In this document: positions 2,611 through 63,336 of the stretch, piece by piece
Position numbering within the stretch: the stretch's first letter is position 1
Layout: the number at the start of each line of letters is the position of its first letter
Source of the DNA: Jiella pelagia
Lineage (GTDB): Bacteria; Pseudomonadota; Alphaproteobacteria; Rhizobiales; Rhizobiaceae
Direction of reading: 5' to 3'
Length of the DNA: 64,000 nt
Assembly (NCBI RefSeq): GCF_026898155.1
Contig: NZ_CP114029.1
Coordinates: forward strand, 2,894,001 to 2,958,000
Made by a program: the position numbers and the translations under genes
Notes under the pieces: model-generated
Told to the model about the DNA's origin: nothing
The model's database searches: none
The model's input: the letters and a program-made list of their open reading frames with translations, nothing else

Positions 2611-3733
2611 TTGCCGTCGAGGCCCCAGAGCGTCCTGAAGCCGCCGACATAGGCGTCGCCATAGCCGGTATCGAACTGCGCCGGCGAGCCGGCATCGGCG
2701 ACGTTGTCCTTGTCGAAGATGTAGAAGGGCACGTTCAGCGCAGTCGGCGACTTCATTCCGCAGGCATCGCGCAGATGGCCGTCGACCGTCGCATAGGCGA
2801 TCCAGTCGAGGCTCTCGCCGATGTCCATGTCGACCACCCCTTGCGAGATGAAGTCCAGAACGAACGGGGTGCCGTTGAAGGTCGCGACCTTCACGGAGCC
2901 GGCCCGGCCGGTCAGCCGCAGGGCGGGCACGACGAATTGCGACATGGAATCGTAGATCGGAACGACGACGTTGACGTCGGGGTCCACCTGCAGCGCCGAC
3001 TGGACCGACGGCTGGATCTTCGTGGCCCACTCGGTGACGCCGACATTGATCTCCTGGGCGATCCTGCAGTCCGGGCAGTTTTCTTCCAGCGCGCTCTTGA
3101 TGCCGGCAACCAGAGGACCCGTCGGCGGCACCTCGTTGGAGACGATCAGGACGATGTTGGCCTTGCCGTCGGTATTGGCGATCGCCCAGTTGCCGAGGAT
3201 CTTGCCGACCTCGTTGAAGCCGACGGTCAGCGAGGCTCGAGACCAGCGGGTTCTGCTCGTCCGACGGATCGTAGAAATGCGATGTCATCACCTTGACGCC
3301 GGCCTCGGAAGCGGCGCGAACCTGGGGCGCGACCGTGGACGGGTCGATCCCCGAGATCAGGTCGATGATGTCGAAGCCGTCGCGGACGGCGTATTCAAAC
3401 CCCTGGACCCACTGGCTCGGCTGTCCCTGGTTCTCCCATTCGACGACTTCGAGGCCGAGGCTCGGCACCGACGATCTTCATCCGGTCGATGATGCCCTTC
3501 AGGAAGGGATTGCCGCTGGAATTGGGGATCGACAGCATGCGCTTGCCGGCCGCGCAGGCCCTGGCGTCGAACGGCTCGCCGGGGGCCTCGAACACCGGCT
3601 TTTCCTGATAGCTGTCGATCGCCTGCCTGGCGCGCTCGACCCCGGCCGCGGCGTCCTGCGCCGACGCGGGAAAGGATGCGATCGTCAGCAGCGTGCCGGC
3701 GAGAAGACCTGGCAGAATTGAGCGGGCATGCAT
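2607..3733 (-). CDS. Periplasmic sugar-binding protein of the ABC importer (two apparent frameshifts)
   Basis: Substrate-binding protein of the ribose type. It starts at ATG 3733 behind a strong GGAGGAAAG ribosome site and has a signal peptide ending near SFPASAQ. As written, the frame breaks twice, at GAGGCTC 3457-3463 and GAGGCTC 3232-3238. Taking one base out of each (to GAGCTC) gives one continuous frame of 374 residues: MKIVGAELGLEVVEW across the first site and NPLVSSSLTVGFNEVGK across the second. The mature part has the typical binding-protein pattern SIPNSSGNPFLKGIIDRM near residue 65 and a conserved C-terminal DTGYGDAYVGGF. I treat the gene as intact and the breaks as sequence errors. 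It lies just upstream of the ATPase in one operon. Confidence 0.85.
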
Positions 3734-3792
3734 GGTCTTTCCTCCATGGACGTCATTCGCCGGGTTTTCTTGCCGACTTGCGGCTTCCGGCG

Positions 3793-3806
3793 TGAATACG
3801 CATTCA
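3793..3806. promoter_or_regulatory. Candidate LacI-type operator
   Basis: TGAATACGCATTCA has perfect 5-base arms (TGAAT/ATTCA) around ACGC. It lies 60 bases upstream of the binding-protein start in the divergent gap between the importer operon and the LacI-type regulator. The size and the CG near the centre suit a LacI-family operator, but assignment is by position and symmetry only. Confidence 0.45.
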
Positions 3807-4009
3807 ATCTGTGCGATCGTCAGGGCCGAGTCAATCGTGCCAAGCCCACCGACAGGTTGAGTTTTGCGGAGTTCCAGCCTATTGCCGAGAAAACCGGCAC
3901 GCCTGATCAGGTCTTCGGCAGCGGCGCACACGCATTCGTCACTGCCGCCGCGACGGGCGCCGCCGCCACGCTTCGTCCACATCCGCGCACGACGAGAGGG
4001 TTCCGTGCG

Positions 4010-5065: not shown

Positions 5066-5152
5066 ACGGGGGAGTTGGCGGCTTCGTGTGGCCGCAGGAT
5101 GTCGACTGAAAGCCGGCTTCCATGGTCCCGCGTGCCGCTGTAAGGACATCCC

Positions 5153-6148: not shown

Positions 6149-6409
6149 CGCGGGTCTTGCGGATAGGGAGCCGGGCCCGACTGTCGAAACTTTGCCGGAC
6201 GCCTGGGGACACGAGCCCGAAGATCCCCATATGTGGCGAGGTCTGTCGGCTTCTTGCCGCAAATCGTGATTTGCCGGCTCACGGCTCTTGCTATGTGTCT
6301 GCCGGTTCTCGAAGCCGTTCGACCGGATTCGCCGCCGCGACGAAGATGCCGGCTCTCTCGGCCCCTATCGATGCCGGCCCGCTGCCTTCGGGCCTTGAAG
6401 GAAATTGCC

Positions 6410-7827: not shown

Positions 7828-8588
7828 TCACCGGCGGAACAGGCAGGTTCTTTGGCCCTCGATCTCGCGCACCAGGACGGGCAGGCCGAACACCGCCTCG
7901 ATCGTTTCTTCGGTGACGACCTCCTCGACCGACCCGTCGACGACAATCCGCCCGTTTCGCATCGCGACGATCCTGTCGGCGTAAGCGCTGGCGAAATTGA
8001 TGTCGTGGAGGACGACGACGACGATCTTGCCGAGGCTCGTCGGCGGCCCGGCGGATGAGCCGCATCATCGCGACGGCGTGGCGGATGTCGAGATTGTTGA
8101 GCGGCTCGTCGAGGAGGATCGCCTTGGTGTCCTGGGCCAGGACCATGGCGACAAAGGCGCGCTGGCGCTGGCCGCCGGAGAGCCTCGTCGAGGAAGCGCT
8201 CGGCGAGGGGTTCGAGGTCGAGAAAGGCCAGGGCCTCGGCGATCTTCTGGTGATCCGCCGCCGTCAACCGACCCTTCGAATGGGGGAACCGGCCGAAGCC
8301 GATGAGGTCACGGACGGTGAGGCGGGCGAGCAGGCCGTTCTCCTGCCTGAGGACCGAGATCCGCCGCGCCAGGTCGTCGCCCTTCGTTCGCGTCACGTCG
8401 AGCCCGTCGACGAGGGCGCGTCCTTCGTCGATCGGCAGGAGCCGCGCGATCATCGAGAGGAGGGTCGACTTGCCGGCCCCGTTCGGCCCGATGATGGCGG
8501 TGACGCCGGGCGCGCTCAAGGTCAGCGAGGCGCGATCGACGACGCGGGTGTCGCCGTAGAGCTTGGTCAAAGCGGACGCTTCGATCAT
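7828..8588 (-). CDS. Ferric-siderophore ABC transporter ATPase (two apparent frameshifts)
   Basis: FecE/CeuD-like ATPase energising the two permeases upstream. Walker A is IIGPNGAGKSTLL near residue 35. The frame breaks at GAGCCTC 8180-8186 and GAGGCTC 8032-8038. Reading each as GAGCTC gives RFLDELSGGQRQRAFVAM (the ABC signature), then LLDEPLNNLDIRHAV and RRAADELGKIVVVVLHDI with the switch histidine. The corrected protein is 252 residues and ends GQRTCLFRR, a normal length for the family. Both breaks would otherwise remove the signature and Walker B, so the gene is best read as intact. The start overlaps the preceding permease by four bases. Confidence 0.87.
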
Positions 8589-12707: not shown

Positions 12708-13701
12708 CTAGCGCACGCTGCCCGGCGAGATGCCGAAATGCCGCTTGAAGGCCGTCGAGAAGTTCGAGGCGCTCCGGTAGCCGGCCATGTGCGCGGCCTC
12801 CGCGACGCTGAGGCCCTGCTGCTCGATGGCCCGGCGGGCGCGGTTGAGGTTGCGCCGGCGGACGTAGTCGAAGGCGCTCATCCCGTGGACGCTGTGGAAC
12901 AGGCGCTGCAGCGTGCTGACGCTGGCCCCGGTGGCGGCGGCGATCTCGTCGAGGCTGGGCGAGGGATTGGCGAGGCTCGCGCAGATAGTCCTCGATCCGG
13001 CGCATCCTGTGCAGGTCGCGCGAGCCGACATGGCCGGTCGCCCAGCAGGCCGGCCGCATGTTCAACTGGCCGAGCCCTTCGGCGACGAGTTCCAGCGCAC
13101 GGCTTTCCAGATAGAGCTTCTGCAAGGCGGGCTCGTAGGAGGGCGGCCTGAGGATCTGCTCGCCGATGGCAATCATGCTGGCGCCGGGCCGCCAGCCGTG
13201 GCGCGCCAGATGCGTGCGGCAGAATTCGGCGATCACCGGGGCGCGGTTCGGATCGGCGAGGCCGCAATCGGCGAGCCAGTCGTGGGAGACGGTGACGTTG
13301 ACCTTGCGCAGATGCTCGCCCCGGCGCGAGCGGCGGGAAAACAGCGTCGGGCGGGTGCGGACCATCACCGCCGCCCGAACCGTCTCGCCGTCGCCCTCAC
13401 TTGCCGGCATGATCGGGCGGCTGTCGATCGTCGCGTCGACGGCGCCCTTCAGGAACAGGTAGAAGGTGACGCCGGAGCGCTGCTCGATCCGGGTATCGAG
13501 GTCGGCCAGTTCGGTGGTGTCGGAGGCGTGGAGGACGAGGCCGGGCCTTAGCTCCGTCAGCCGATACTGCCCCTTCAGCGCGGCGCCGTCGTCGCCCGTC
13601 CCACCGCGCAGCCAGGCGAACTTGCGGCCGACGATCGCCGAGGCGTCGGCGATCCGGCTGGCGGCAATGGTCTCCTCGGCAAGATCGAACGTGGCGCTCA
13701 C
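12708..13701 (-). CDS. AraC-family regulator, PchR-like (one apparent frameshift)
   Basis: 330 residues after correction. The probable start is GTG 13701 (GAAGGGGATGGC upstream). The N-terminal ligand-binding half contains RLTELRPGLVLHASD and is followed by a C-terminal double helix-turn-helix with SPSLDEIAAATGASVSTLQ and SVAEAAHMAGYRSASNFS. The frame breaks at GAGGCTC 12972-12978, just between the two halves. Reading GAGCTC there gives IEDYLRELANPSPSLDEIA. PchR-type proteins sense a ferric siderophore and switch on its receptor and uptake genes, which agrees with the divergent TonB receptor and the importer downstream. The start codon is the least certain part. Confidence 0.82.
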
Positions 13702-13980: not shown

Positions 13981-16132
13981 ATGATGAGCTTCAATCTCGG
14001 TCGGCGGACGAACCGCGCCAGGCTGTTCCAAGTGCTCGCGACGACGAGCGCGATGGCGACGATATCCTGGGGGCAGAGCTTCGCCCAGAGCGCCGGCTCC
14101 ACCATCGAGCCTCGACACCGTCATTGTCGACGGGGCGAGCTACGAGACGGAGGGAACGAACAGCTACGCAACCGACCTGATCAGTGTCGGCGAGAAGGAA
14201 GCCCGGCCGCCGCGCGAAATTCCGCAGTCGACCACCGTTCTGACCCGGGAGCGGATCGAGGACGGGGGCTACACCTCGCTCGACACCGCCCTGCGCGAGA
14301 CGCCGGGCATCGTCGTCCTCAACAACGACAACGGCCGCTCCAGCATCTTTTCCCGCGGCTTCGAGTTCGATTCCCTGTATTTCGACGGGCTGCCGGCGCC
14401 GCTTTCGAGCGTCTACGGCACCCAGCCCGATCTCGCCATCGTCGACCACATCGAGATCCTCAGGGGGCCGTCCGGCCTGTTCGGCGGCACCGGCGAGCCG
14501 GCCGGCACCATCAACATGGCGCTGAAGAAGGCGCCGGAGGTGTGGCGCGGCTCCATCGAGGGCCAGTACGGGACGTGGGATACCAAGCGCACCGAACTCG
14601 ACGTCGGTGGGCCGCTGAACGAGGCCGGCACCATCCGCGGCCGCATCGTCGGCGCCTATCAGGACGGCAACAACATGGTCGACGCCGTCGACAACGAAAA
14701 CAGCGTCGCCTACGGCACCGTATCGGTCGACGTGACCGAGCAGACCACGGCGACCTTCACCATCAGCCATCTCGAGCGCGACATCACGCCGTTCAACGGC
14801 CTGCCCACCTATGCCGACGGGTCGCTGATCGATCTCGACCGCTCGACCTACACCGGCGCGGACTGGAACCAGTTTGACAATGAGGTCACCGACTACCTCG
14901 CCGAGGTCGAGCACAAGTTCGAGGATGGCGGTCACGCGCGGGTGGCGATGCGCTATTCCGACCGGCACGCCGATTTTCTCTATGGCTGGGCGGGCAGCGC
15001 CGCTGACCAGAACGGCAACGTCAACGGCATCCGCTGGATCGGCCGCGACTTCGACGAGCAGTCATTGGCTCTCGACGCCTTTGTCTCCAAGCCTTTCATG
15101 CTGTTCGGTCAGGAGCACAACGTGCTTCTCGGCGCCGACTACCGCAAGATCGACACGACGCTCCTCTCGGCCTCCGGCATGATCGCCGGCACCCACAATC
15201 TCTACGACTGGGACGCCTCGTCCATCGCCGAGCCGACCGTCAACTACACCGGCCAGACTGACAGCGACCAGCGCCAGACCGGCGTCTACGGACAGCTGCG
15301 CATCAAGCCGATCGACAGGGTGACGCTGATCGGCGGCGGGCGCGTCAGCTGGTACGATTCGTCGACGGAGAACCTTCTCACCGGCGCCACGCAGGACGAG
15401 ATCAAGATCGACGGCCACTTTACTCCCTATCTTGGAGCGGTGGTCGATCTGACCGATCAGATCTCGGCCTATGCCAGCTACACCGAGATATTCCAGCCGC
15501 AGACCTATTTCGACGCCAGTGGTGATCTGCTCGATCCGCGGCAGGGCGATCAATACGAAGTCGGCTTCAAGGGCGAGTTCTTCGGCGGCGCGCTCAACGG
15601 CACGGTCGCCTATTTTCATCTGACCGACAAGAACCGGGCCCAGCAGGACACCAATGGCGACTACGTCGCACTGGGCGAGGTCGAGGCGAGGGGCGTCGAG
15701 ATGGAGGTTGCCGGCGAATTGCTGCCGAACTGGCAGCTCCAGGCCGGCTACACCTACACCGAGACGGAATATGTGAACGGCAGCGGCGCCGGCTCCGTCT
15801 TCAGCCCCTATACGCCCGAGCATCAAGTGCAGATCTGGACCGACTACACCTTCCGCGAGGCCGATGCCTGGTGGGATGGCCTGTCGATCGGCGGCGGCGT
15901 CAAGATCTACAGCGACTTCTCGGCGGTGAGCGGCTCGACCACGATCGAGGCGCCCGGCTACGAGGTGGTCGATCTGCAGCTCGGCTACGAGTTCAACGAG
16001 AATTTCTCGGCCAAGCTGCGGGTCAACAACCTGTTCGACCAGAAGTACTACGCCCGCGTCGGCTCGACCTCGGTGTTCAACTTCTACGGCGAGGAGCGCA
16101 ACGCCATGCTGTCGCTGAAGGCGAAGTTCTGA
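13981..16132 (+). CDS. TonB-dependent ferric-siderophore receptor (one apparent frameshift)
   Basis: Outer-membrane receptor of the FhuE/FpvA type, 716 residues after correction. The start is one of two adjacent ATGs (13981, 13984) behind GAGGGG. A signal peptide ends near WGQSFAQS. The frame breaks at GAGCCTC 14107-14113; as GAGCTC it reads GSTIELDTVIVDGASYE, leading into the plug domain (TVLTRERIEDGGYTSLDTAL, then IEILRGPSGLFGG). The beta-barrel ends in the usual C-terminal phenylalanine (MLSLKAKF) and contains RVNNLFDQKYYAR. Together with the importer, esterase and PchR-like regulator it forms a siderophore scavenging locus. No siderophore synthesis genes are visible, so a foreign siderophore is likely. 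Confidence 0.9.
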
Positions 16133-18219: not shown

Positions 18220-18742
18220 ATGAGCAAGTTCCTGTCGCGCTATGCGGCGGCGATGGATCGCGCCAGCGTCTTCATCGGCCATGCCTGCTCGGCGCTGTTC
18301 TTCGCCTGCATCTTCTTCTCCGCCCTCGAAGTGGTCATGCGCTACGGCTTCGACCATCCGACCTCGTGGTCGATCGAATTGACGATGGCGCTCTGCGCCA
18401 TGGCCTGGGTGCTGTCGGTCGGCTACGTCACCGAGCGCAACCGCCACATCTCCATCACCATGCTGGAGCCTCATGGTCGGGCCGCGCGTCTGGCACTGGT
18501 TCCGCCTGATGCAGATCATCGCCGCGATCGTCACCGTCTCGGTCTTCGCCATGGCGGTCTGGGATCCGGCGCTCCGGGTGTTCTCGCGGCCGGAATATTC
18601 CGGAACGGCGCTGAACTCGATCCAGCCGAGCCTTCTCAAGGTCCTGATCCTGGTCGGCGCGATCCTCTACGTCCTGCAGCTCCTCGCCAATCTCATCCGC
18701 TGGGTGCAGGGCACCGAGAAGGCCTCGACCCATGGGCATTGA
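18220..18742 (+). CDS. TRAP transporter small permease, DctQ family (one apparent frameshift)
   Basis: Four-helix small membrane subunit, 173 residues after correction. It opens with MSKFLSRYAAAMDRASVF and carries the DctQ pattern FFSALEVVMRYGFDHPTSWS. The frame breaks at GAGCCTC 18466-18472. As GAGCTC it reads ISITMLELMVGPRVWHWF and continues into the last two helices (LIVGAILYVLQLLANLIRW in part). The end overlaps the dctM start by 11 bases. It pairs with the large permease to form the sodium-driven TRAP membrane complex. Confidence 0.87.
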
Positions 18743-20049: not shown

Positions 20050-20148
20050 GCATGATCCCGAAAAGTGGGCACCGGTTTTCGGAAAAGATCATGCGCAGAC
20101 AGAATGGTAGAGCGAGATGATGAGCAGAGCTCATTTCATCTCGCTCTA
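20050..20148. repeat. Two adjacent palindromes of a rhizobial dispersed repeat
   Basis: The first palindrome (20050-20094) has outer arms GCATGATC/GATCATGC and inner sequence CCGAAAAGTGG...CCGGTTTTCGG. The second (20108-20148) has perfect 13-base arms, TAGAGCGAGATGA/TCATCTCGCTCTA, around a 15-base loop. From memory, the first unit resembles a dispersed intergenic repeat found in many rhizobial genomes; I cannot confirm copy number from one window. It fills the gap between dctM and the next small gene and may fold in the mRNA. The loop holds one of only two uninterrupted GAGCTC sites in the window (20127-20132). Confidence 0.75.
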
Positions 20149-20161
20149 AGGGAGGCGAACG

Positions 20162-29729: not shown

Positions 29730-31098
29730 TCAGATCCGCGACGCCAGCGTCGCCGTTGCTCTCCTGAACCGCGCGAAGATCGCCTCGCCGTCGACATGGC
29801 GCCCGCCCTCGACGCGCTTCTGGCCCAAAGCCCAGACCTTGTCGATGGGGGATGATGAGGCGCCAAAGACGAAGCTGTCGAGAATGCGGTCGCCGCCGCG
29901 GCCGACGAGGGCCGGATGCTCGGCCTTCAGCGAGACGAGATCGGCGAGGGCGCCGGGCTTCAGCCCGGCTGTGCCGATGCCCGTCGCGCGGGCGCCGCCG
30001 GCGAGCGCTGCCTCGAAGACTGTCCGGCCGTTGGAGGCCCCGTGGGGCGCCAGGACGTTGCGGGCGCGGCGATTGAGTCGTTGGGCATATTCCAGCTGGC
30101 GCAGTTCGTCTGCGGCGCCGATCAATACGTTCGAATCGGTGCCGACGCCGAGCGTGCCGCCGGCCGCGACGAATTCGGCGGCGTTGAAGAAGCCGTCGCC
30201 GAGATTGGCCTCGGTGACCGGGCAGAGGCCGGCGACGGCGCTGGTGGCGGCGAGGGCGCGGGTTTCGCTCTCGGTCATGTGGGTGGCATGGATCAGGCAC
30301 CAGCGCGCATCGACCGCTGCATGGTCGAGCAGCCATTCCACCGGCCGCTGGCCGCTCCAGGCTAGGCAGTCGTCCACCTCCTTCACCTGTTCGGAAATAT
30401 GCATGTGAAAGGGCGCGTCGGGCCGCAGCGCGGCGGCAAAGGCGAGCCTCCTCGGGCGTTGCGGCCCTGAGGCTGTGGGCGGCGACGGCGAGTCGCGATT
30501 CCGGGAAAGCCGCGATGGCGCTTTCGCTCGCTTCGAGGAGGCGGGCAAAGCCGTCCCGGTCGTTGATGAAGCGACGCTGGCCCGCCGTCGGTGCGGCTCC
30601 GCCGAAGTCGGAATGGGCGTAAAGGACCGGGATCAGCGTCATGCCGATGCCGCTGTCCGCCGCGGCCGACGAAATCGCGTCGGCCAGCCGCGCGAGGTCG
30701 TCATAGGGTGTGCCGTCCGGCTGGTGATGGAGATAGTGGAACTCCCCGACGCGGGTGAAGCCGCCTTCCAGCATCTCGGCATAGAGCTGGGCGGCGACCG
30801 CCTCGATCTCCTCGGGAGAAAGCGCCAGCGCAACGCGGTACATGATGTCCCGCCAGGTCCAGAAGGTGTCGTGGCCGGGCCCGCGGATCTCGGCGAGCCC
30901 CGCCATCGCCCGCTGGAAGGCGTGGCTGTGGAGATTGGCCATGCCGGGAATGAGGATCGCCACCCGCTCGTCGCCGGGCATGGGCGCCGCGCCGGCCTTG
31001 ACCGACCCGATCCTCGTACCGGCGACGGTGACCCGGCAGTTTGCCGCAAAGCCTTCCGGCAGCAGCGCATTTTCGGCAAAGATGGTGGTCTCGGTCAT
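29730..31098 (-). CDS. hutF: Formimidoylglutamate deiminase HutF (one apparent frameshift)
   Basis: 455 residues after correction. Zinc amidohydrolase that converts N-formimino-L-glutamate to N-formyl-L-glutamate and ammonia, feeding HutG. Family motifs are MANLHSHAFQRAMAGLAE (metal histidines), GEFHYLHHQPDGTPYDDL, FHMHISEQ and VGTDSNVLIGAADELR. The frame breaks at GAGCCTC 30444-30450. As GAGCTC it reads AATPEELAFAAALRPDAPFH with no gap. It is divergent from hutI across a 93-base gap. Its presence with hutG shows the five-step histidine pathway. Confidence 0.9.
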
Positions 31099-36478: not shown

Positions 36479-36784
36479 GAGGCGCACACGGGCGGGCTGG
36501 CCAGCCGAGGTGACGGCTTTCCGCCGCCGACAGCCCGATCGCCGCTCCTCGCCCTGCGGAAAGCCAAGCACAGCCTTGGGCAAGCCACCAGACGCATACA
36601 AGAGCAAATGCGAAGACGACCAGACGATCTGGTGGCTGCCGTAGCGCCAGACCGCGTCTGAACTGCAAGAAATAGCCGGACGAAGAGGAGTTGGAGCTGT
36701 CGCCTGAGCAGCTTCATCGGCTTTCGCGCGGCCGCTGACTGCCGAAGAATGCTCCCCGTGTCAGGGACCCGAAGGGCCGGCTCG
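36479..36784. other. Intergenic region before the octad-repeat gene
   Basis: About 306 bases without a supportable gene. I see one near-perfect inverted repeat, ACCAGACGATCTGGT at 36619-36633 (arms ACCAGA/TCTGGT), which could be an operator or a small hairpin. No clear promoter, terminator or RNA gene is visible. Confidence 0.4.
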
Positions 36785-39700: not shown

Positions 39701-41036
39701 GCTCTCACCACCGAACAGCTTTCCGCATTGACGACGAGCCAGATCGCCGGACTGACGGCAGGCCAGATCGAAGCGCTTTCCCCGGCGCAGATGAACGCCC
39801 TGTCGACCGCACAGGTCGGCGCCTTCACGGCTAGCCAGATCGCCGGCCTTTCGCCGGAAAAGGTCACCGGGCTGTCCACCGAGCAGTTCGCGGCGCTCGG
39901 CACCAAGGCCATTTCCGGCCTGACCACCCCGCAGATCGCGGCCTTCAGCCCGAGCCTCGCCCAGAGCCTGACGACGAGCCAGATCGCGGCGCTGAACGCG
40001 GAACAGGTCGCTTCGCTCAGCAGCGCGGCGCTGGAGGCCCTGTCGGCGGACGCAATCGCCGCGCTCAGCGCCAACGGGATTGCCGGCCTGCCGGCAGAAA
40101 AGATCGCCAGCCTGCGCGTCGATCAGGTGGCCGCCCTGAAGGCGACCCAGATTGCCGGGCTGACGACCAGCCAGGTCGCGGCCCTGACGCCCTCGCAGGT
40201 CGAGGCTCTGACACCGACGCAAATCGCCGCCGTCAGCGCCACGCAGGCAGGCGCCTTCGGCCCGCAGGCCGTTGCCGCGCTGACCGGGGCGCAGGTTGCC
40301 GCCCTGACCGCCAAGGCGGTCGCCGGCCTCACGCCCACCCAGATCGAGGCCATGAGGCTCCACCCAGATCGACGCATTTTCGACCGCGCAGATCGCGGCC
40401 CTGACTTCGGGCCAGATCGCCGCGCTCAATGCCGCCGACCTCGCCACCTTCTCCCCTGCCGATCTTGCGGCGATCAAGCCGGCGGCGATCGCCGGGCTTT
40501 CCGCCGATCAGATCGCCGGGCTCGGCGGTGACCAGATCGCCGCCCTGACGACGGGCCAGATCGAGGCCCTGTCCTACTACCAGCTGCGGGCGCTCGACAC
40601 CGTGCAGATAAAGGCGCTGACCACAACGCAGATCGCCGCCCTCAACGCCGTGCAGCTTGCGACCTTCGGCACCGACAAGATCACCGCGCTCTCGCCGGCA
40701 CAGATCGCGGCGCTCAATCCGACGTCGGTGGCCGGCCTGACCCTCGACCTGATCCCGCTTCTCACCGCAGAACAGGCCGAGGCCCTGACATCCACCCAGG
40801 TGGCAAGGCTCGGCGCGGCACAGATCGATGCGCTCAGCACCGACCAGCTCGCGACCTTCTCGACGGACGACATCGCGGCCATCAGCAACTACGCGCTGCC
40901 CGGCCTTTCCGAGGCCGATATCGGCAGTCTCAGGCTGGAACAGCTGCAGGCGATCACGCCGACGCAGACCCAGGCGCTGGATTCCTTACAGATTGCCGCG
41001 ATCATGTCGGCGTATAAATCCTATCAGTCGATCTGA
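36785..41036 (+). CDS. Giant octapeptide-repeat protein, function unknown (one apparent frameshift)
   Basis: 1,416 residues after correction. The start is taken as ATG 36785 (MTTISSQSTL); the frame opens at 36749. The frame breaks at GAGGCTC 40354-40360; as GAGCTC it reads IEAMSSTQIDAFSTAQ and the repeat register is kept. Residues 28 to 1410 are 173 octads of the form [IV]-x-A-[LF]-[ST]-x-x-[QED], then KSYQSI. No Cys, almost no aromatic residues except Phe, no signal peptide, no membrane segment, no known domain. S/T-P-x-Q/E at each unit is a helix N-cap pattern, so I infer a solenoid of very short helices. It stands alone between the hut operon and a convergent Rieske oxygenase gene. Possibly a surface or structural protein; function is not known to me. 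Confidence 0.85.
36866..41015 (+). repeat. Tandem 24-base coding repeats with 408-base super-period
   Basis: The 173 codon-octads are diverged at DNA level but keep register; one octad (number 40, VTALGDA) is one residue short. Octads whose last residue is not Gln/Glu/Asp but usually Ala (for example IAAINPYA-type) mark a second level. Type A markers follow a TF[ST]xxD octad; type B precede an xGLTxxQ octad. From octad 15 to 168 they alternate A-B at 10 octads and B-A at 7, so 17 octads (136 residues) repeat nine times. The only exception is the first B-A gap (octad 5 to 15), which is 10. Confidence 0.85.
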
Positions 41037-42466: not shown

Positions 42467-43760
42467 TCACCGTGCCGGCTGATCGATCGGCCTGACGTCC
42501 CGGCTCTCGTACCAGAGCGACACGGCCTCGATCTGCTCCTCCGTCATGTTGATGGCGATCGGATCCATCAGGTGGGCGAAGCGCGTGCCGCCGCGATGGC
42601 CTTCCTTCCAGAGGCTCAAGATGGGTCTTCAGATACCAGAAGGGATGGCCGTCGAGCCGCGGAAAGAGCGGGTTGCGGGCGATGCCGTCCGGGCCGTGGC
42701 AGCTGTCGCAGGCGGCGATCTTGCGTTCCGGCAGGCCGGTCTCGGCGATGCGGCGGCCGAGGGCTAGCGTCTCGTTTCGGCCGATGGGAAAGCCGGTCGC
42801 CGCCGCAGGGTCGATCTGGAAGACCTCCGTCATCGGCCGGACGTCGCTCACCTGTGTGGGCTCCAGCGCTGAATCCGTCGCGGCCTCCTCTGCGGCTTGC
42901 GACACCGCCCCGTTGCCGGGCGATGCCGCCGGCTGGCCGGCATAGTAGGTGGCAAGCTGCTCCAGCACCGCGTCGTCGTAGCGGGCGGCGGCGGACTGCA
43001 TATAGCCGCTCTGGCGCGTCCCCATCTGGAAGGCCTTCAGCGTCGCGGCGAGGTAGGCCTGCGGCTGGCCGGCGATGATCGGGAAGGCGCCCTTCGGCCC
43101 GCGTCCGAGGCCATTCGTGCCATGGCATCGGGCGCAGTCGGCGACGGCTTCCCGCATGATCCCATCGAGCCCGCCCAGCGCCTCGGCGCCGGCCTCCATG
43201 TCGACCTCGTCGGGCGCGCCACCCGCGCCGATGTCGAGCGCCAACTCGCGGTAGCGCTCCGGCGTCATGCCCGGAAGCGCGCGAAGAAAGGCGACCATCG
43301 ACCAGACCTCGTCGGGGCGCTCCTGGGCCGGCCAAGCCGGCATGCCGGAATACTTGATGCCGTGCTGCACGATCCAGAAGAGTTCGCGGTCCTCCCACTC
43401 GGCGATCCGGTCGCCGACATGCAGCTGCGGCGGCATCGGCGTCATGTGCTCGACGACTTCCGACTGGCGAACCCCCGGCGCTGCGTGACAGGGGGCGCAG
43501 CCGGTAGCGAAATGCCCGGAGCCCCGCTGCACCAGGGCCGGGTCCGAGAGATCGAGATCCTCCGGCTTTTCCACCAGCCAGGAGCGGCGCGAGACGGTCT
43601 GCTGCATCGTCCAGTGCAGGAACCAGCCGACCGGCGCGAAATGCCCCGAGGAGGCGCCGATCGACACGAGGCCCGAGGCGCCGACGGCGAATGGCGCGAC
43701 GGCGACGAGGACGATGGCGGCGATGACGCGGCGGCGGGTGAGCGTGACCGAGAGTTTCAT
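42467..43760 (-). CDS. Membrane-anchored triheme cytochrome c (one apparent frameshift)
   Basis: 430 residues after correction. An N-terminal anchor (VIAAIVLVAVAPFAVGASG) is followed by three CxxCH heme sites: CAPCH, CARCH and CDSCH. The last lies in a cytochrome-c4-like domain with LDGHPFWYLKTHLELWKEG. The frame breaks at GAGGCTC 42611-42617; as GAGCTC it continues EGHRGGTRFAHLMDP and ends DQPAR at 42467. It is the last gene of a terminal oxidase cluster and overlaps the CtaG gene by four bases, so it likely passes electrons to that oxidase. Confidence 0.86.
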
Positions 43761-48785: not shown

Positions 48786-49990
48786 CTACGCCAGATCTGC
48801 CACCACCGCGTCGAGCACCAGCATGCCCGCCGGCGTCGCACGAATGCGGTCCGGGCCGAGGCGCTCGATCATGCCGTGATGGGCAAGGTCCTGTTCGCTC
48901 GCCTTGTCGATGTCGCGGCCGGCGAGCTTGCGCCAGCGGCAGAGGTCGATGCCCTCGGTGAGGCGAAGGCCCATCAAAAGCAGCTCATCCGCCTGTTCTT
49001 CGAGGCTCAGCGCCTCGTCGGTGACCGCGCCGGAATCCCAGCTCTCCACCATCTTCAGCCAGGTCTCCGGTAGCGGCTCGTTGGCGATGGCGTGGCGATG
49101 GCCGTTCTCGCCCTTGAGGCGACCATGGGCGCCGGGGCCGACGCCGGCATAAAAGCCGTAGCGCCAATAGGTGAGGTTGTGGCGCGATTCGGCGCCCGGC
49201 ACGGCGTGGTTGGAGATTTCGTAGGCCGGCAGGCCGCGGGCGGCGGTGATTGACTGCGTCGCCTCGTAGAGCCTCGGCGGAGAGTTCGCCATCCGGCACC
49301 TTCAGCTTGCCGGCCTTGTGCAGGTCGAAGAAGGGCGTGCCCATTTCGATGGTCAGCTGGTAGAGCGACAGGTGGTCGGCGGCCAGATCGATCGCCTGGT
49401 TGAGGCTCCGCTTCCCAGGCTTCCACCGTCTGGTTCGGCCGCGCATAGATCAGGTCGAAGGATAGCCGCGGGAAGATCTCGCGGGCGAGGCGGATGGCTT
49501 CGAGCGCGGCCGAAACGTCATGCAACCGGCCGAGACGGCGAAGGTCCGGATCGTTCAGCGCCTGGACGCCGAGCGAGACGCGGTTGACGCCCGCCGCACG
49601 ATAGCCGCGGAAGCGCGAGGCCTCGACGCTGGACGGATTGGCCTCCAGCGTGATCTCGGCATCGGGCGCGATCGCCCAGTTTTCCGCCACGGCGTCGAGG
49701 AGTGCACCGACGGTCTCGGGCGCCATCAGGGAAGGCGTGCCGCCGCCGAAGAAGATCGAGGTGACGAGTTCGCCCTTGGAGCGCCGCGCCGCCTCCTTCA
49801 ATTCGCGCGCAAAGGCCGCGACGTAGCGCGGCTGGTCGATGGCCGAGCGGCGGACATGGCTGTTGAAGTCGCAATAGGGGCATTTGGCCGCGCAGAACGG
49901 CCAATGGATGTAGACCCCGAAGCCAGGGGCCGCGGGGACCTTGGCGAAGGGCAGGACGTCGGACGTCATGTGCGGCGCGATCAGGTTCAT
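48786..49990 (-). CDS. hemW: HemW, radical SAM heme chaperone (two apparent frameshifts)
   Basis: 400 residues after correction. The radical SAM cluster motif is CAAKCPYCDFNSH near residue 27, followed by FFGGGTPSLM and NRVSLGVQALND. The frame breaks at GAGGCTC 49402-49408 and GAGCCTC 49269-49275. As GAGCTC they read EAWEAELNQAIDLAADHLSL and ELSAELYEATQSITAARG, joining to GLPAYEISNHA and the HemW C-terminal domain. HemW inserts heme into respiratory enzymes. ATG 49990 has AAGGGG upstream, 10 bases after the rdgB stop. A GAGGCTC at about 49003 is in frame and genuine. Confidence 0.9.
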
Positions 49991-53736: not shown

Positions 53737-54838
53737 ATGATGTCCGTCAGCGACTTCGCCCGCATCCAGGTTCCGCCGCTCGACGAGCGCGCCCGCGAGA
53801 TCTTCCGGCTGATCGTCGAAAGCTATCTCGACCAGGGCGAGCCCGTCGGCTCGCGCATGCTGTCGAAGCTTCTGACGTCGTCGCTGTCGCCGGCCTCGGT
53901 GCGCAACGTCATGAGCGATCTCGAAGCGCTCGGCCTGATCTATTCGCCGCACATCTCGGCCGGGCGGATGCCGACGGAGATCGGCCTGCGCTTCTTCGTC
54001 GACGCATTCCTGGAGGTCGGTGATCTCGCCTCGTCCGAGCGGGACGAGATCGAGGAGAAGGTGCGCCTCGTCGGCGACGGGCGCGGGGTCGAGAACCTTC
54101 TCACCGAGGCGAGCAACCTGTTGTCCGGCCTGTCGCGCGGCGCCGGCATCGTGGTCACGTCGAAGTCGGACCTGCGGCTGAAGCACATCGAGTTCATCCG
54201 CCTCGAGCCGACCAAGGGCCTCGCCGTCCTCGTCGGCGAGAATGGCGAGGTGGAGAATCGCATCTTCGACCTGCCGGCGGGGGTCACCGCCTCGCAGCTG
54301 GTGGAGGCGGGCAACTTCCTCAACGCCCATGTCGTCGGCCGCACCCTCGGCGAGGCGCGCACGCGCATCGCCGCACTGAAAGTCGACACGGCGACCGCGC
54401 TCGATCTCCTGTCCCAGGCGCTCGTCGATCAGGGCCTCGCCATCTGGTCGGGCGCTTCGGCCGGACAGCCGGCGCAGCTGATCGTCCGGGGGCGGGCGAA
54501 CCTTCTGGAAAACATCTCCGCTTCCGAGGACATCGAGCGCCTGCGCCTGCTCTTCGACGATCTCGAGACGAAGAACGGCATGATCGAGCCTCCTGGGCCT
54601 TGCCGAGGGCGGCAATGGCGTGCGGATCTTCATCGGCTCGGAGAACAAGCTGTTCTCGCTCTCCGGCTCGTCGCTCATCGTCGCGCCCTACAAGGGCGGC
54701 GCCGAGAGCGTCGTCGGCGCCGTCGGGGTCATCGGCCCGACGCGGCTGAACTATCGGCGCGTCGTGCCCATGGTGGACTACACCGCCCGCATCGTCTCGC
54801 GGCTGTTGCAGCGGAAGGCGGCCGAAGGCGAGGCTTGA
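53737..54838 (+). CDS. hrcA: Heat-inducible transcription repressor HrcA (one apparent frameshift)
   Basis: 366 residues after correction. An N-terminal winged helix ([38 protein letters not shown]) is followed by the GAF-like HrcA domain. The frame breaks at GAGCCTC 54586-54592; as GAGCTC it reads [20 protein letters not shown] and goes on to [20 protein letters not shown]. HrcA represses groESL or related heat-shock operons through CIRCE elements. I see no CIRCE in this window. The start is one of two adjacent ATG-type codons at 53737. Confidence 0.92.
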
Positions 54839-55012: not shown

Positions 55013-55724
55013 ATGATGAGCGAGACCGGCAAAACCGAGGGCGAGACCCACGACACCGACGTCACCGAGAATGCCGCCACCGAGGGTGGTGCGGCCTCCG
55101 AAACGGGCCAGCCGCAATCCTCCAACTGGGGCGCCGGTGCGGCCTATGAGGAAACGGTGGGAGATGCGGCGGAAACCGGCCGCAGCGACGAGGCCGAAAG
55201 GATCGCGGCGCTCGAAGCCGAGAATGCCGACGTCAAGGATCGGCTCCTGCGGCTTGCCGCCGACATGGAAAATCTGCGCCGGCGCACCGAGCGCGAGGTC
55301 AAGGACGCCCGCACCTATGCCGTCACCAGCTTTGCCCGCGAGATGCTGTCGGTCGCCGACAATCTTTCGCGGGCGCTCGATGCGGTGCCGGAAGAGCATC
55401 GCGCCGACGAGAGCCTCCGGCCTGAAGGCGCTGATCGAAGGCGTCGACATGACCGAAAAGGGCCTGCTTGCGACGCTCGAAAAGCACGGCGTCAGGAAGC
55501 TCGAGCCGGAAGGCCAGCGCTTTGATCCGAACTTCCACCAGGCGATGTTCGAGATCCCCAATCCGGAGGTGCCGAACGGCACGGTGCTGCAGGTCGTCCA
55601 GGCCGGCTACGCCATCGGCGACCGGGTACTGAGGCCGGCCATGGTCGGGGTCTCCAAGGGCGGGCCGAAGGCCGCGCCCGCAGAGGCCAAGGGCGCCGAG
55701 GCGGAGGCCCGCGCCGGGCAATAG
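55013..55724 (+). CDS. grpE: GrpE nucleotide exchange factor for DnaK (one apparent frameshift)
   Basis: 236 residues after correction, from ATG 55013 or 55016 (AAAGAGGG upstream). An acidic N-terminus precedes the long coiled-coil ([40 protein letters not shown]), then the GrpE head ([40 protein letters not shown]). The frame breaks at GAGCCTC 55411-55417; as GAGCTC it reads [20 protein letters not shown]. It releases ADP from DnaK. It follows hrcA as in other Alphaproteobacteria and ends in a strong terminator. Confidence 0.93.
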
Positions 55725-55806: not shown

Positions 55807-55880
55807 TTTGCTTTGTAGCGAATCGGGCGATGGTGTAGGCCATCCGCTTTCGGGCGTTTTGTGAAAAGGATGCGACGGCG

Positions 55881-58767: not shown

Positions 58768-58786
58768 AAAATCTCTGTTGCGTCAG

Positions 58787-59338: not shown

Positions 59339-59368
59339 GGGCGTAATCCGCTCCCCTGGCAAAAGAGA

Positions 59369-59503: not shown

Positions 59504-59524
59504 CAAATCTTTAATAGTCGCCCG

Positions 59525-61048
59525 TGAAGAATGTTCCCTAAGCGGCGGCGGCGGTTTGGCGGGTGCCGAATAGGCTGATGATCGCAATCTGGATGAAGGC
59601 GACAAAAAGCTTCAGCCAGGCGAGGATGCGGCGGAAGTTGTAGCCGACGGCGGCGAGGACGGCGTTGGCGGCGTCGCCGATGCGGTGGGCCAGATGATTG
59701 CGGCCCATTCGGTGATCGGCCTTGAGGTGCCCGATGACGGGTTCGACGGCCGCCCGCCTTCGCATCTCGCGGCGGATTGCCTCGGTCATGCCGCGTTTCT
59801 GGCCCGAGGTGTAGACCTTGAGGCGATGGCTTTGAGGGGCGTTGTGGCCCTTGTAGCCGGCGTCCGCGATGATCCTCGTGAGGGTCGCGCCGACCTGGCG
59901 CTCGATGGCGGGAATGACGGTGGCCAGTGTGTGCCCGTCGTACGGTTTCCCGGGCAGCGCCGCGACATGGGTGACGAACTGGCCGCCCTTCGAGCGCTTC
60001 AGCGTGGTGGCGACGCAGACCTTGACGCCGAACTCGTAGGGCCGGTGGGCTTTTCCCTTGCCGATGCATTCGACCTCGGGCGCATGCAGGCTGAAGACCC
60101 TGAGATCGGCGTCTTTCGGCTGTCCCCTGACGGGGTTGAGATTGCGGTTGCCGGCATGGACCCTGCGGGCCAGCATCAGCTCATGGGCGGTGGCGGCTTC
60201 GAGCTCCAGGTCGCCCTTGGTCTTCCTGACGATGTCGCGGATGACCCGGCCGAGATAGGTCCTGAGGGTTCTCAGCGCCTTGTTCGCACGCTTGAACTGC
60301 TTGGCATGGGCGTAACGCTGCTGCTTGATCAGGGCGAACTTGCCGACCCGCTCATAGGACTGGCGCAGATCGATCCCCAGCGTCTTGGCCAAGCGCACCA
60401 GGCGCTCGCGCGAGCGCTGCATCAGCTTGGCATCGGTCGGATGGGCGACGGCCTTGGGCTGCACGGTCGTGTCGACGATGGCCTTGGTGAAGTCGGCGGG
60501 CCTGGCCGCGCCGGTGCGCGTCGCCGTGGCGAGGCTCTCCTGCAGAAGCGCGTTCAACCTCTCTTCGCCCATCCGCTGGCGCCAGCGCGTCATCGAGGAT
60601 CGGTCGAAGGGCAGCCTGTGGCAGAAGAATTCCTCGCCGCAGAACAGTTGATAATAGGGGTTCTCCAGCCAGCGATCGCACAGTGCCTCGTCGGACAAAT
60701 CGTGCATCGCCTTCAGGATCGCCAGCCCGGCCATCAGCCGGGTCGCCAGCGGCGGATGGCCGGGCGCGTCCGTGTAGACCGCGCCGAGCCGCTCTTCGAG
60801 AAATTGCCAGTCGATCGCCCGGCCGAGCCTGGCGAGAGCGTGGTTCGTGTCGACGATCTGGTCGAGCCGGGCCCGGAACATGTCCGTCTGCCCGCTGTCC
60901 CGCCGCTCCTTCGGACGCATCCCGACGCTCCCGATTCATGGACCCGAAAGCCATGGAATCACGCCAGCCGCCGCAACGCAATTTGCAAGTTTCTCAGCCC
61001 ACAGACGGCTGAAACTGGCAGAAATCAATTCTTCCCTGAAGCTGATCA
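59525..61048 (-). mobile_element. IS5-family insertion sequence, ends not certain
   Basis: GC-rich element about 1.5 kb long inside an AT-rich island. It carries one transposase gene. A 5-base direct repeat GCCCG flanks it at 59520-59524 and 61049-61053 and may be the target duplication. However, I could not find convincing terminal inverted repeats at these points, so the limits are provisional. It contains an uninterrupted GAGCTC (60201-60206). Confidence 0.65.
59538..60920 (-). CDS. IS5-family transposase
   Basis: 460 residues. N-terminal part: RARLDQIVDTNHALARLGRA and FCGEEFFCHRLPFDRSSMTR, then WRQRMGEERLNALL. DDE catalytic core: first Asp in KAIVDTTVQPKAVAHPTDAK, second in RIIADAGYKGHNAPQ, and the Glu in RRRAAVEPVIGHLKADHRMG. 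The C-terminus has AANAVLAAVGYNFRRILAWL. It is full length and uninterrupted, so the element is probably active or recently inserted. Confidence 0.92.
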   Translation of the reverse strand: MRPKERRDSGQTDMFRARLDQIVDTNHALARLGRAIDWQFLEERLGAVYTDAPGHPPLATRLMAGLAILKAMHDLSDEALCDRWLENPYYQLFCGEEFFCHRLPFDRSSMTRWRQRMGEERLNALLQESLATATRTGAARPADFTKAIVDTTVQPKAVAHPTDAKLMQRSRERLVRLAKTLGIDLRQSYERVGKFALIKQQRYAHAKQFKRANKALRTLRTYLGRVIRDIVRKTKGDLELEAATAHELMLARRVHAGNRNLNPVRGQPKDADLRVFSLHAPEVECIGKGKAHRPYEFGVKVCVATTLKRSKGGQFVTHVAALPGKPYDGHTLATVIPAIERQVGATLTRIIADAGYKGHNAPQSHRLKVYTSGQKRGMTEAIRREMRRRAAVEPVIGHLKADHRMGRNHLAHRIGDAANAVLAAVGYNFRRILAWLKLFVAFIQIAIISLFGTRQTAAAA

Positions 61049-61498
61049 GCCCGCCATTTCAATGGCTTCGACATACTTCACGGGAGACTTAATAATGTCG
61101 AACGCTGGTGTGCCAGGATCAAGATCGATTACGCCGCCACATTTGCCATCTGACGTCTCGTCCAAGGCGCACATAAATGAGTTTAGTCCGGGATCGTAAA
61201 CAAACGTGGGAGATTCGTTTGTTTTCTTTCCACTGCTGCCATAGTATGAGTATTCATAAACATTATTCTGTTTCATGACAGATTTTGCATCGTTACCAAT
61301 TTCTATTAGACTCGGGCTTATTAATAAGTTTTCGCGAAAACATTTCAAAAGTACATCTGCAACGGGTCGTAGATTTGTTACAGACGCGTCATTCTTTTTT
61401 GCTTCAATAACAAAATTTGACGATTCATCCGCGCAGTAAGCAGCTAACGATAGTGGGGTATTAGTGCGAAAACAAGAAAGGAGGCGAATGCTAAGCAC
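61046..61498 (-). CDS. Hypothetical protein beside the IS element
   Basis: 150 residues, AT-rich. The N-terminus (LLSCFRTNTPLSLAAYCADE) may be a signal peptide. Later parts include VIDLDPGTPAFDIIKSPVKY and a final EAIEMAG. The stop at 61046 probably comes from the IS end; without the insertion the protein would end EMAGDY. No family is recognised. It may be the first gene of a small acquired operon continuing at 59503 and 59338. Confidence 0.55.
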   Translation of the reverse strand: MLSIRLLSCFRTNTPLSLAAYCADESSNFVIEAKKNDASVTNLRPVADVLLKCFRENLLISPSLIEIGNDAKSVMKQNNVYEYSYYGSSGKKTNESPTFVYDPGLNSFMCALDETSDGKCGGVIDLDPGTPAFDIIKSPVKYVEAIEMAG

Positions 61499-61931
61499 CG
61501 CACCATCGAATGCGCGTGAAAAAAGGGCATGTTGTCCACCTCTCTTTGGTACTTATGTTAACTTTGAACGCCATATCCTATGCGATGCAACTGTTAGGGC
61601 GAACTTTGGTCCTCGTTTGACCTCTCAGCTTTTATCGCCAATCGTCATCTTGATGGCGTACTATTAGCGAAAATCGCTATCGCGCTTGCAAACATAATAT
61701 GGGTATAACTTGCGATACGTGCCGTAGAAGTGAGTTATACCACGAATTTTCGTGCGATCGTGGAGACGCAGATAACTTTGTGGAATGGCAACCCTTTCAA
61801 GGGTTACGTTGCGCCACATTATGTTTGAAAGCGGGCGGTCGTACAACGTTCGCCACTCTTTTTTCATAACGGCCCCATCGTCCAAGCGTCGCGACCTTCC
61901 GTCGCCGCCCGCCATCCGCTAATCCCGCCTC
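61499..61931. other. AT-rich spacer before radA
   Basis: 433 bases with no gene I can support firmly. A minus-strand frame at 61664-61867 (67 residues, MKKEWRTLYDRPLSNIMWRN at the start) has no recognisable domain or ribosome site and is doubtful. A 9-base inverted repeat AAACATAAT/ATTATGTTT lies near 61688 and 61818. It holds the right edge of the AT-rich island; composition returns to GC-rich just before radA. Confidence 0.35.
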
Positions 61932-63336
61932 ATGGCTAAACCCAAGCTCACCTTCATCTGCCAGGCCTGCGGCGCGGTCTATACGCGCTGGCAGGGCAAG
62001 TGCGAATCCTGCGGCGAGTGGAACACCATCGTCGAGGAGAACGCCTCCGGCGGCATCGGCGGCGGGCCGCAGCGGGGCTCCCGGCGCAAGGGCCGGCCGT
62101 CGGCGCTGCTTCCCCTGTCGGGCGAGATCGAGGAGGCGCCGCGCATCGTTTCGGGCATCGACGAGGCTCGACCGGGCGACGGGCGGCGGCATCGTCCGCG
62201 GCTCGGCGATCCTCATCGGCGGCGATCCCGGCATCGGCAAGTCGACGCTGCTGATGCAGGCGGCCGCCGCCCTGGCGCGGCGCGGCAGTTCGGTCGTCTA
62301 CGTCTCCGGCGAGGAAGCGGTGGCGCAGGTGCGGCTGCGCGCCCAGCGGCTGCAGGCGGCGGACACCGACGTCATGCTGATGGCCGAGACCAACGTTGAG
62401 GATATCCTCGCGACCCTCGCGGAGGCCAAGCGTCCCGACCTCCTGATCATCGATTCGATCCAGACGCTTTGGTCGGACTTCGCCGAATCGGCGCCCGGGA
62501 CCGTCACCCAGGTGCGGGCCGGCGTGCAGGCGCTGGTGAAATACGCCAAGTCGAGTGGAGCCGCCGTGATCCTCGTCGGCCACGTCACCAAGGACGGCCA
62601 GATTGCCGGCCCGCGCGTCGTCGAGCACATGGTCGATGCCGTCCTCTATTTCGAAGGCGAGGGCGGCCACCATTTCCGCATTCTTCGCACGGTGAAGAAC
62701 CGCTTCGGCCCCACCGACGAGATCGGCGTCTTCGAGATGGGCGGGGAAGGCCTGCGGGAAGTCGCCAATCCGTCCGAGCTTTTCCTCGGCGAGCGCAACG
62801 CCAAGTCGCCCGGCGCGGCGGTCTTTGCCGGCATGGAGGGCACCCGCCCGGTGCTGGTCGAGATCCAGGCCCTCGTCGCGCCGTCGGCGCTGGGCACACC
62901 GCGCCGGGCCGTGGTGGGCTGGGACCAGCCGCGGCTTGCCATGGTGCTCGCCGTGCTCGACGCGCACTGCGGTGTGCGCCTCGGCCAGCACGACGTCTAT
63001 CTCAACGTCGCCGGCGGTTTCCGCATCTCCGAGCCGGCGGCCGATCTCGCCGTCGCCGCAGCGCTGGTCTCGTCGCTGTCGGGCGCACCGCTGCCGCCCG
63101 ACTGCGTCTATTTCGGCGAGGTCAGCCTGTCGGGGGCCGTGCGCCCCGTCGCCCATGCGGCGCAGCGGCTGAAGGAGGCCGAGAAACTCGGCTTCTCCCG
63201 CTCGGTCCTGCCGGACTCCACCGCAGATCTGCCGAAATCCCCCGGCATGCGGATCGAGGCGGTGGAAGCGCTGCCCGATCTCGTCGCCAAGGTCGCGGCC
63301 GGAGGCTCGATCCAAGGCTCCGGCGAAGAGGCTTGA
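61932..63336 (+). CDS. radA: DNA repair protein RadA (one apparent frameshift)
   Basis: 467 residues after correction. N-terminal zinc finger CQACGAVYTRWQGKCESCGEW, RecA-like Walker A GGDPGIGKSTLLMQ, the RadA-specific KNRFG (in TVKNRFGPTDEIG) and a C-terminal Lon-like domain (DVYLNVAGGFRISEPAADLA). The frame breaks at GAGGCTC 62163-62169; as GAGCTC it reads SGIDELDRATGGGIVRGSAI. It processes recombination intermediates. Another GAGGCTC near 63303, close to the C-terminus, is ambiguous: read as GAGCTC the protein would run on about 12 more residues. Confidence 0.93.

What the first reader, a model, noticed from the sequence alone, without database searches (positions are those of the whole stretch)
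3232..62169. Every +1 frameshift in the window falls on GAGCCTC/GAGGCTC and is repaired by restoring GAGCTC
Sixteen breaks, in thirteen genes, begin at 3232, 3457, 8032, 8180, 12972, 14107, 18466, 30444, 32356, 40354, 42611, 49269, 49402, 54586, 55411 and 62163. Each is a 7-mer GAG(C or G)CTC; dropping the central extra base gives the palindrome GAGCTC and the expected residues (for example RadA GIDELDRATGG, Hrc[13 protein letters not shown]). All corrected lengths are whole codon numbers. Uninterrupted GAGCTC was found only at 20127 and 60201, while base composition would predict around 20. About a dozen other GAG(S)CTC sites are in frame and genuine. A base modification at GAGCTC (a SacI-like methylase specificity) that makes a single-molecule base caller add a base is the simplest cause. 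The two intact sites lie in probably multi-copy DNA (a dispersed palindrome and an IS).
Basis: partly seen in the sequence, partly recalled or inferred. Interest (0 to 1): 0.85.

Follow-up and report, generated by a model that had tools for sequence, protein, structure and literature searches.

The report
Sequencing errors at methylated GAGCTC sites
This marine bacterium's published genome looks full of broken genes, but nearly all the breaks are one extra letter added wherever the DNA reads GAGCTC, most likely a sequencing-machine error at sites the bacterium chemically marks itself; the bacterium is fine, the assembly is not.

Summary
Fourteen of the 16 breaks are +1 frame changes against an unbroken Jiella pacifica orthologue; the other two (3232, 3457) rest on coding-phase statistics. 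The effect is genome-wide. GAGCTC occurs 353 times against 2349 for the reversed control, ratio 0.15; nine other Jiella genomes give 0.51-0.74. GAGSCTC is in excess by about 1,130, so roughly 76% of GAGCTC sites carry an extra base. Essential genes are hit repeatedly: rpoB twice, rpoC four times. A living cell could not carry these insertions, so they are assembly errors.

The genome has one C5-cytosine methylase. Three of the six relatives found sit beside a SacI-family endonuclease, and its recognition domain is 59-65% identical to theirs. Its own neighbour is a different candidate endonuclease (MTaX1), whose gene is itself split at a GAGCCTC. Methylation and sequencing platform were not measured. 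A few frameshifts lie off the motif (window 52958; two near rpoB). This is a known kind of artefact with a new motif and an almost pure one-base insertion. It matters for users of this genome and suggests that methylase specificity can be read from finished assemblies.

The parts
3232..3238 (.). GAGGCTC, false +1 shift (unnamed gene, first break)
   Evidence: coding-phase shift +1 in all three window sizes; no aligned J. pacifica counterpart in the stretch fetched
3457..3463 (.). GAGGCTC, false +1 shift (same gene, second break)
   Evidence: coding-phase shift +1 in all three window sizes
8032..8038 (.). GAGGCTC, false +1 shift in iron/siderophore-type ABC transporter ATPase gene
   Evidence: alignment to intact J. 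pacifica ORF; family
8180..8186 (.). GAGCCTC, false +1 shift, same ABC ATPase gene
12972..12978 (.). GAGGCTC, false +1 shift in AraC-type regulator gene
14107..14113 (.). GAGCCTC, false +1 shift in TonB-dependent siderophore receptor gene
   Evidence: J. pacifica has GAGCTC here; phase statistics weak/contrary
18466..18472 (.). GAGCCTC, false +1 shift in TRAP transporter DctQ gene
30444..30450 (.). GAGCCTC, false +1 shift in a small ORF (72 aa in J. pacifica)
32356..32362 (.). GAGCCTC, false +1 shift near the end of hutI; makes an artificial fusion ORF with the aromatic amino acid lyase gene
   Evidence: phase statistics do not show it
40354..40360 (.). GAGGCTC, false +1 shift in ALTTAQ-repeat protein gene
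42611..42617 (.). GAGGCTC, false +1 shift in cytochrome c gene
49269..49275 (.). GAGCCTC, false +1 shift in hemW; J. pacifica has GAGCTC
49402..49408 (.). GAGGCTC, second false +1 shift in hemW; J. pacifica has GAGCTC
54586..54592 (.). GAGCCTC, false +1 shift in hrcA
55411..55417 (.). GAGCCTC, false +1 shift in grpE; J. pacifica has GAGCTC
62163..62169 (.). GAGGCTC, false +1 shift in radA
20127..20132 (.). intact GAGCTC in a palindromic element, multi-copy in the DNA fetched; J. pacifica has GAGCTC at the same place
60201..60206 (.). intact GAGCTC, no phase change

Best explanation
The extra bases are not in the organism. The strain, a Jiella species, methylates GAGCTC with its single C5-cytosine methylase. 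The assembly was made from native DNA read by a single-molecule method, probably nanopore, whose base caller had not learned this mark and read the marked centre of the palindrome as one base too many. The consensus kept the error at about three quarters of sites, as GAGCCTC or GAGGCTC depending on which strand's version won. These two products are reverse complements, so one simple reading is that the marked cytosine of one strand is called twice. Shown: the motif, the genome-wide scale, the absence from congeners, the presence of the methylase and its kinship to methylases partnered with SacI-family endonucleases. Inferred: that it methylates GAGCTC in vivo, that the inner C is the marked base, and that the platform was nanopore.
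For: Genome-wide GAGCTC 353 vs control 2349; nine congeners have 702-1945. GAGSCTC 2175 vs control 984, while 7 congeners have ratios 1.03-1.12. GAGCTC is the most depleted 6-mer and GAGCCTC the most enriched 7-mer (runs of N apart) by z-score in an unbiased comparison of 640 kb with 361 kb of relatives. In 760 kb, +1 phase change at 127 of 198 resolvable GAGSCTC (289 in all), -1 at 2, none at 69; in 438 kb of relatives +1 at 0 of 41 resolvable (76 in all). Away from GAGNCTC the rate of phase changes is that of relatives. Of 8 J. pacifica GAGCTC sites (25 in the alignment) whose six letters survive here, 7 carry an extra base; 5 more in rpoB-rpoC. rpoB has 2 motif insertions and rpoC 4, inside unbroken J. 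pacifica ORFs of 1382 and 1454 aa. Broken and intact sites together have, three bases outside, the composition of relatives' GAGCTC (p = 0.74). One PF00145 methylase in the genome; relatives at 56-59% identity beside RE_SacI in 3 of 6 cases; recognition domain 59-65% identical to those three, against 31-33% for two other Jiella C5 methylases. M.SacI is a C5 methylase of GAGCTC (PMC4725820, passages). Precedent for 5mC-motif errors in nanopore consensus: PMC6591954 (passages); for lineage-specific modification errors: PMC10687267 (abstract and first part of Results).
Against: No reads, signal or methylation data seen; the platform is unknown. The six genomes bearing relatives of the methylase show no GAGSCTC excess like this one (ratio to control 0.93-1.24) and no comparable GAGCTC loss (ratio 0.50 or more), so the mark alone is not sufficient, or their specificity differs. 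The adjacent gene here is not a SacI-family endonuclease. A further methylase gene (PF01555, beside what look like phage genes) exists and was not excluded. About a quarter of GAGCTC sites are intact without a full explanation. A few frameshifts are off the motif. The modification errors that I read about most closely were mismatches, not insertions, and in one benchmark methylated motifs mostly did not lead to errors (PMC12392509, passages).
Confidence: 0.88

Rival explanations
1. The insertions are base-calling or assembly errors at GAGCTC, but the cause is not the C5 methylase: either the caller fails on this palindrome without any mark, or another enzyme (such as the second PF01555 methylase) or another modification is responsible.
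For: No methylation data exist here; a further methylase gene is present; genomes with related C5 methylases lack the errors.
Against: A failure on the unmarked palindrome should show in other genomes made the same way; of 41 genomes counted the next lowest GAGCTC/control ratio is 0.33 against 0.15 here, though their platforms are unknown. The single C5 methylase has the recognition domain of SacI-linked enzymes.
Confidence: 0.1
2. The extra bases are real mutations in the strain, for example from faulty repair at GAGCTC cut by its own nuclease.
For: A candidate endonuclease sits beside the methylase.
Against: About 1,130 insertions, including six in rpoB-rpoC and one each in guaA and grpE; the choice of inserted base follows flanking sequence for 2 of 4 flank pairs tested (14 vs 0 and 20 vs 6).
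Confidence: 0.01
3. The extra bases are real and the cell reads through them by programmed +1 frameshifting at GAGSCTC.
For: Most broken sites lie in one codon phase: 121 of 127.
Against: Genuine in-frame GAGSCTC sites coexist, 69 of 198 resolvable; the loss of GAGCTC would be unexplained; relatives' GAGCTC has the same codon phase at 88 of 97 sites, so the phase is inherited from GAGCTC; no congener counted shows the pattern.
Confidence: 0.01

Closest known systems
Dcm-motif (CCWGG, 5mC) errors in nanopore consensus, PMC6591954 (passages)
   Same: C5-cytosine methylation motif; consensus errors concentrate at the motif in native-DNA assemblies
   Different: different motif; the passages seen do not break Dcm errors down by type; here a single centred insertion
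Modification-mediated errors in Listeria at GCAGC / GCTGG, PMC10687267 (abstract and first part of Results)
   Same: lineage-specific modification system, thousands of errors at one motif, persists through polishing
   Different: those errors were mismatches, with indels excluded as the cause; here almost pure +1 insertions, so gene calls collapse
Methylation-linked R/Y ambiguity in Klebsiella (RACG/CGTY), PMC11610573 (passages)
   Same: motif-linked systematic nanopore errors
   Different: base ambiguity; insertion, indel and deletion do not occur in its main text
SacI restriction-modification system (M.SacI, C5 methylase of GAGCTC; PMC4725820, passages)
   Same: C5 methylase of the type found beside RE_SacI endonucleases; predicted same site
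   Different: the partner gene here is an MTaX1 protein, not RE_SacI; the M.SacI sequence itself was not compared

Membership tests
Modification-induced single-molecule sequencing error | errors confined to one short motif genome-wide | tested here: met
   a few sporadic errors lie elsewhere
Modification-induced single-molecule sequencing error | absent from close relatives lacking the modification enzyme | tested here: met
   9 congeners normal for GAGCTC, 7 for GAGSCTC. Of 8 congeners searched for C5 methylases 4 have none and the other 4 have only ones 28-32% identical to this
Modification-induced single-molecule sequencing error | vanishes when DNA is amplified before sequencing | not testable with these tools
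   no reads or DNA
Modification-induced single-molecule sequencing error | assembly made from native-DNA long reads | not testable with these tools
   three contigs (5.58 Mb, 217 kb, 151 kb) suggest long reads; platform unknown
SacI-type restriction-modification system | C5-cytosine methylase with conserved catalytic domain | tested here: met
   PF00145, 192 bits
SacI-type restriction-modification system | recognition domain like methylases beside RE_SacI | tested here: met
   59-65% vs 31-33% for two other Jiella C5 methylases
SacI-type restriction-modification system | RE_SacI (PF09566) endonuclease next to it | tested here: not met
   neighbour matches MTaX1 PF20296, not PF09566; tblastn with four RE_SacI proteins finds nothing in the 760 kb of this genome fetched, methylase locus included
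SacI-type restriction-modification system | specificity GAGCTC | tested here: inconclusive
   indirect only, from the error pattern and relatives' neighbours

The most novel reading that the evidence does not exclude
The errors reveal a GAGCTC-specific system whose nuclease is new: an MTaX1 protein with a conserved C-terminal D...ECK stretch takes the place of the RE_SacI endonuclease beside the same methylase type. Of the six relatives, three have RE_SacI, two have MTaX1 and one has neither within the DNA fetched. It would be an unrelated enzyme cutting the same site, and its specificity would first have been visible as a scar in a finished assembly, where even its own gene is falsely broken.
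Probability: 0.45. Interest if true: 0.5.

Novelty: new member of a known kind. Interest (0 to 1): 0.42.

Why it matters
The genome held for this species carries about 1,100 false frameshifts. Its completeness estimate (84.97) is the lowest of the ten Jiella genomes compared (the others 93-100), and pseudogene, pathway and phylogeny calls made from it will suffer. The signature (one short palindrome missing, its one-base-longer version in excess, compared with congeners) can be computed on any assembly without reads, so affected genomes could be found. The same signature could name the target of an uncharacterised methylase.

Tried and rejected
Strand-aware codon scoring failed because sense and antisense frames on one codon grid score alike; replaced by phase-only scoring, which cannot tell strand (on).

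CTCGAG seemed shift-prone (15 of 150 resolvable). Away from GAGNCTC it is not: +1 at 4 of 184 resolvable, against 1 of 122 in relatives.

A second error motif was looked for after two off-motif insertions near rpoB in a similar local context. The context is neither shift-prone nor in clear excess, and away from GAGNCTC the whole genome sample shifts no more than relatives; no second motif found.

Multi-copy DNA as the reason for intact sites: weak (5 of 63 vs 1 of 127, p = 0.016; about 13% of the genome was searched for copies). The base three outside the site does better (T: odds ratio 5.7, p = 3e-5), but that position was picked as the best of four tested.

Naming the strain: not possible from the tools. 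Jiella pelagia HL-NP1 has a complete genome in print (PMC11476347, passages), but identity with this window was not tested.

Literature: four searches for motif-linked nanopore errors listed no paper whose title or abstract start reports GAGCTC insertion errors; the listings showed 20 of 560, 20 of 26, 12 of 15 and 7 of 7 papers. Searches served other questions. PDB sequence search with the L150 MTaX1 protein: 0 hits; plasmid search with it: one partial hit.

The own-genome stretches were not a random sample: 260 kb around the window, stretches chosen for intact GAGCTC, contig starts, the methylase loci and 120 kb from rpoB on. The fetched stretches hold a run of about 5,000 N, left alone.
Full report
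WHERE THE WINDOW LIES. The window is C1:2894001-2958000 of a 5,945,794-base genome in 3 contigs. Its DnaB is 99% identical to that of Jiella pacifica 40Bstr34, and the next matches are other Jiella and close kin. The genome G006 is that J. pacifica strain: its contig C67 has the same length, 243,510, as NZ_JAAAMG010000007.1. J. pacifica and the named congeners are multi-contig drafts; from contig names such as NODE and Scaffold I take them to be short-read assemblies (inference).

THE OBSERVATION. I aligned 260 kb around the window to 240 kb of J. pacifica, of which 78.6 kb align. In 56 genes with a coding substitution pattern (59 kb), the frame of this genome against J. pacifica changes by +1 at 17 places, 16 of them at GAGNCTC; it changes the other way at 5 places, none at the motif. 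J. pacifica has one ORF across each aligned break. Families of the broken genes, from the J. pacifica orthologues: ABC ATPase, AraC regulator, TonB receptor, DctQ, HutI, cytochrome c, HemW, HrcA, GrpE, RadA.

SCALE. In the whole genome GAGCTC occurs 353 times and its reversed control CTCGAG 2349 times. Nine other Jiella genomes have 702-1945 GAGCTC and ratios 0.51-0.74. GAGSCTC occurs 2175 times against 984 for its control; seven congeners have ratios 1.03-1.12. The excess is about 1,130 (1,075-1,163 with the extreme ratios), which puts the affected share of GAGCTC near 76%. Comparing all k-mers of 640 kb with 361 kb of relatives, GAGCTC is the most depleted 6-mer by z-score and GAGCCTC the most enriched 7-mer, runs of N apart.

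PHASE TEST WITHOUT HOMOLOGUES. A codon-usage phase test on 760 kb of this genome resolved 198 of 289 GAGSCTC sites: 127 shift by +1, 69 not at all, 2 by -1. In 438 kb of relatives 41 of 76 were resolved: none by +1, 40 not at all, 1 by -1. Intact GAGCTC is unshifted at 39 of 42 resolved sites (63 in all). GAGTCTC and GAGACTC, which are rare, shift by +1 at 4 of 7 and 1 of 5 resolved sites, so the extra base is occasionally T or A. Away from GAGNCTC the frequency of phase changes (+1 1.25%, -1 2.23%) is that of relatives (1.48%, 2.04%), so the motif accounts for essentially all of the excess. The reversed control CTCGAG, away from GAGNCTC, shifts by +1 at 4 of 184 resolved sites, against 1 of 122 in relatives.

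NOT BIOLOGICAL. rpoB is found as four pieces and rpoC as four, in one region. Two motif insertions lie inside the J. pacifica rpoB ORF (1382 aa) and four inside its rpoC ORF (1454 aa). At these six places this genome has GAGCCTC; J. pacifica has GAGCTC at five and GAGCTG at the sixth. One further rpoB break is not at the motif. guaA (outside the window) and grpE are also hit. In the alignment around the window, of 25 J. pacifica GAGCTC sites 8 keep all six letters here, and 7 of those 8 have an extra base. At the third base outside the palindrome, broken and intact sites taken together have the composition of relatives' GAGCTC (p = 0.74).

A CONTEXT-DEPENDENT READING ERROR. Whether C or G is added depends on flanks: with A to the left and G to the right, 14 of 14 are of the C type (p = 1e-4), and one other of four flank pairs tested is skewed, 20 to 6 (p = 0.009); two are not. 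Whether a site stays intact depends on the third base outside the palindrome (T: 16 of 78 flank bases at intact, 11 of 254 at broken sites, p = 3e-5), the only one of four positions to differ. Such short-range dependence is what a signal-based base caller would give; it does not prove one. GAGCCTC and GAGGCTC are reverse complements, so both can be one event, a cytosine at the centre of one strand read twice (inference).

THE METHYLASE. The genome has one C5-cytosine methylase, C1:1356652-1357947 on the minus strand (L122:1297-2595), one N6/N4 methylase of a kind found in all 13 genomes searched (CcrM-like, name recalled), and one more PF01555 protein beside what look to me like phage genes. 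Of 397 genomes of the order, six others have a relative at E <= 1e-90. Three of these sit beside a PF09566 RE_SacI endonuclease (L151, L152, L153), two beside an MTaX1 protein (L150, L154), and one (L155) beside neither within the DNA fetched. A more distant homologue (38% identity) on a Haladaptatus plasmid also lies beside a SacI-family endonuclease. The recognition domain of this methylase is 59-65% identical to those of the three RE_SacI-linked enzymes, slightly more than the whole proteins (56-59%), while two other Jiella C5 methylases reach 31-33%. The gene upstream of the methylase here matches MTaX1, and no RE_SacI was found in the DNA of this genome that I fetched. In L150 and L154 the MTaX1 protein is one ORF with a C-terminal D...IECKN stretch, which recalls PD-(D/E)XK nucleases (recalled, not tested); here the gene is split, with a GAGCCTC in the overlap of the two frames. 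A paper on defence systems calls MTaX1 a domain potentially involved in discriminating modified DNA, found in several R-M systems (PMC10853773, one passage).

RESULTS AGAINST. The six genomes with related methylases have unremarkable GAGCTC and GAGSCTC counts: the mark is not enough, or their specificity or sequencing differs. There are frameshifts off the motif: window 52958 and two insertions near rpoB. The platform and the methylation state are unknown.

PRECEDENT. Nanopore consensus errors at Dcm sites (PMC6591954, passages), at GCAGC and GCTGG in Listeria (PMC10687267, abstract and first part of Results) and at RACG/CGTY in Klebsiella (PMC11610573, passages) are the same kind of thing. 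The Listeria errors were mismatches. In another benchmark methylated motifs mostly did not lead to errors (PMC12392509, passages). GAGCTC is covered by the 5mC motif GRGCYC in Propionibacterium freudenreichii (PMC11649196, passages). I found no report of insertion errors at GAGCTC in the listings of searches.

VERDICT.

Noticed in passing
window 52958: A -1 frame change in the middle of an FAD-dependent oxidoreductase gene, in a garbled run of G, absent from the 8 relatives that matched there (of 9 given) and not linked to GAGCTC.
   Followed up: partly
L167, near C1:3967891 and C1:3977208: Two one-base insertions off the motif, in rpoB and in a gene downstream of rpoC, in a similar local context that is not shift-prone elsewhere.
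   Followed up: partly
L122:2546-3875: Putative endonuclease gene with MTaX1 domain beside the methylase, itself split in two frames with a GAGCCTC in the overlap; unbroken orthologues exist in L150 and L154.
   Followed up: partly
L150 and L155: Methylase relatives with other company: a second C5 methylase in L150, and in L155 a gene with an HSP90-like ATPase domain and a weak MzaB match.
   Followed up: no
window 20110-20150: Short palindromic element around the intact GAGCTC, multi-copy in the DNA fetched and present at the same place in J. pacifica.
   Followed up: partly
window 36538-41036: Long ALTTAQ-repeat protein gene (1498 aa in J. pacifica), broken at 40354.
   Followed up: no
window 22925-25633: Large Sel1-repeat protein.
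   Followed up: no
L148:7836-10576: A helicase-like gene and a PF01555 methylase gene side by side, phage-like in appearance; another candidate modification enzyme in this genome.
   Followed up: partly
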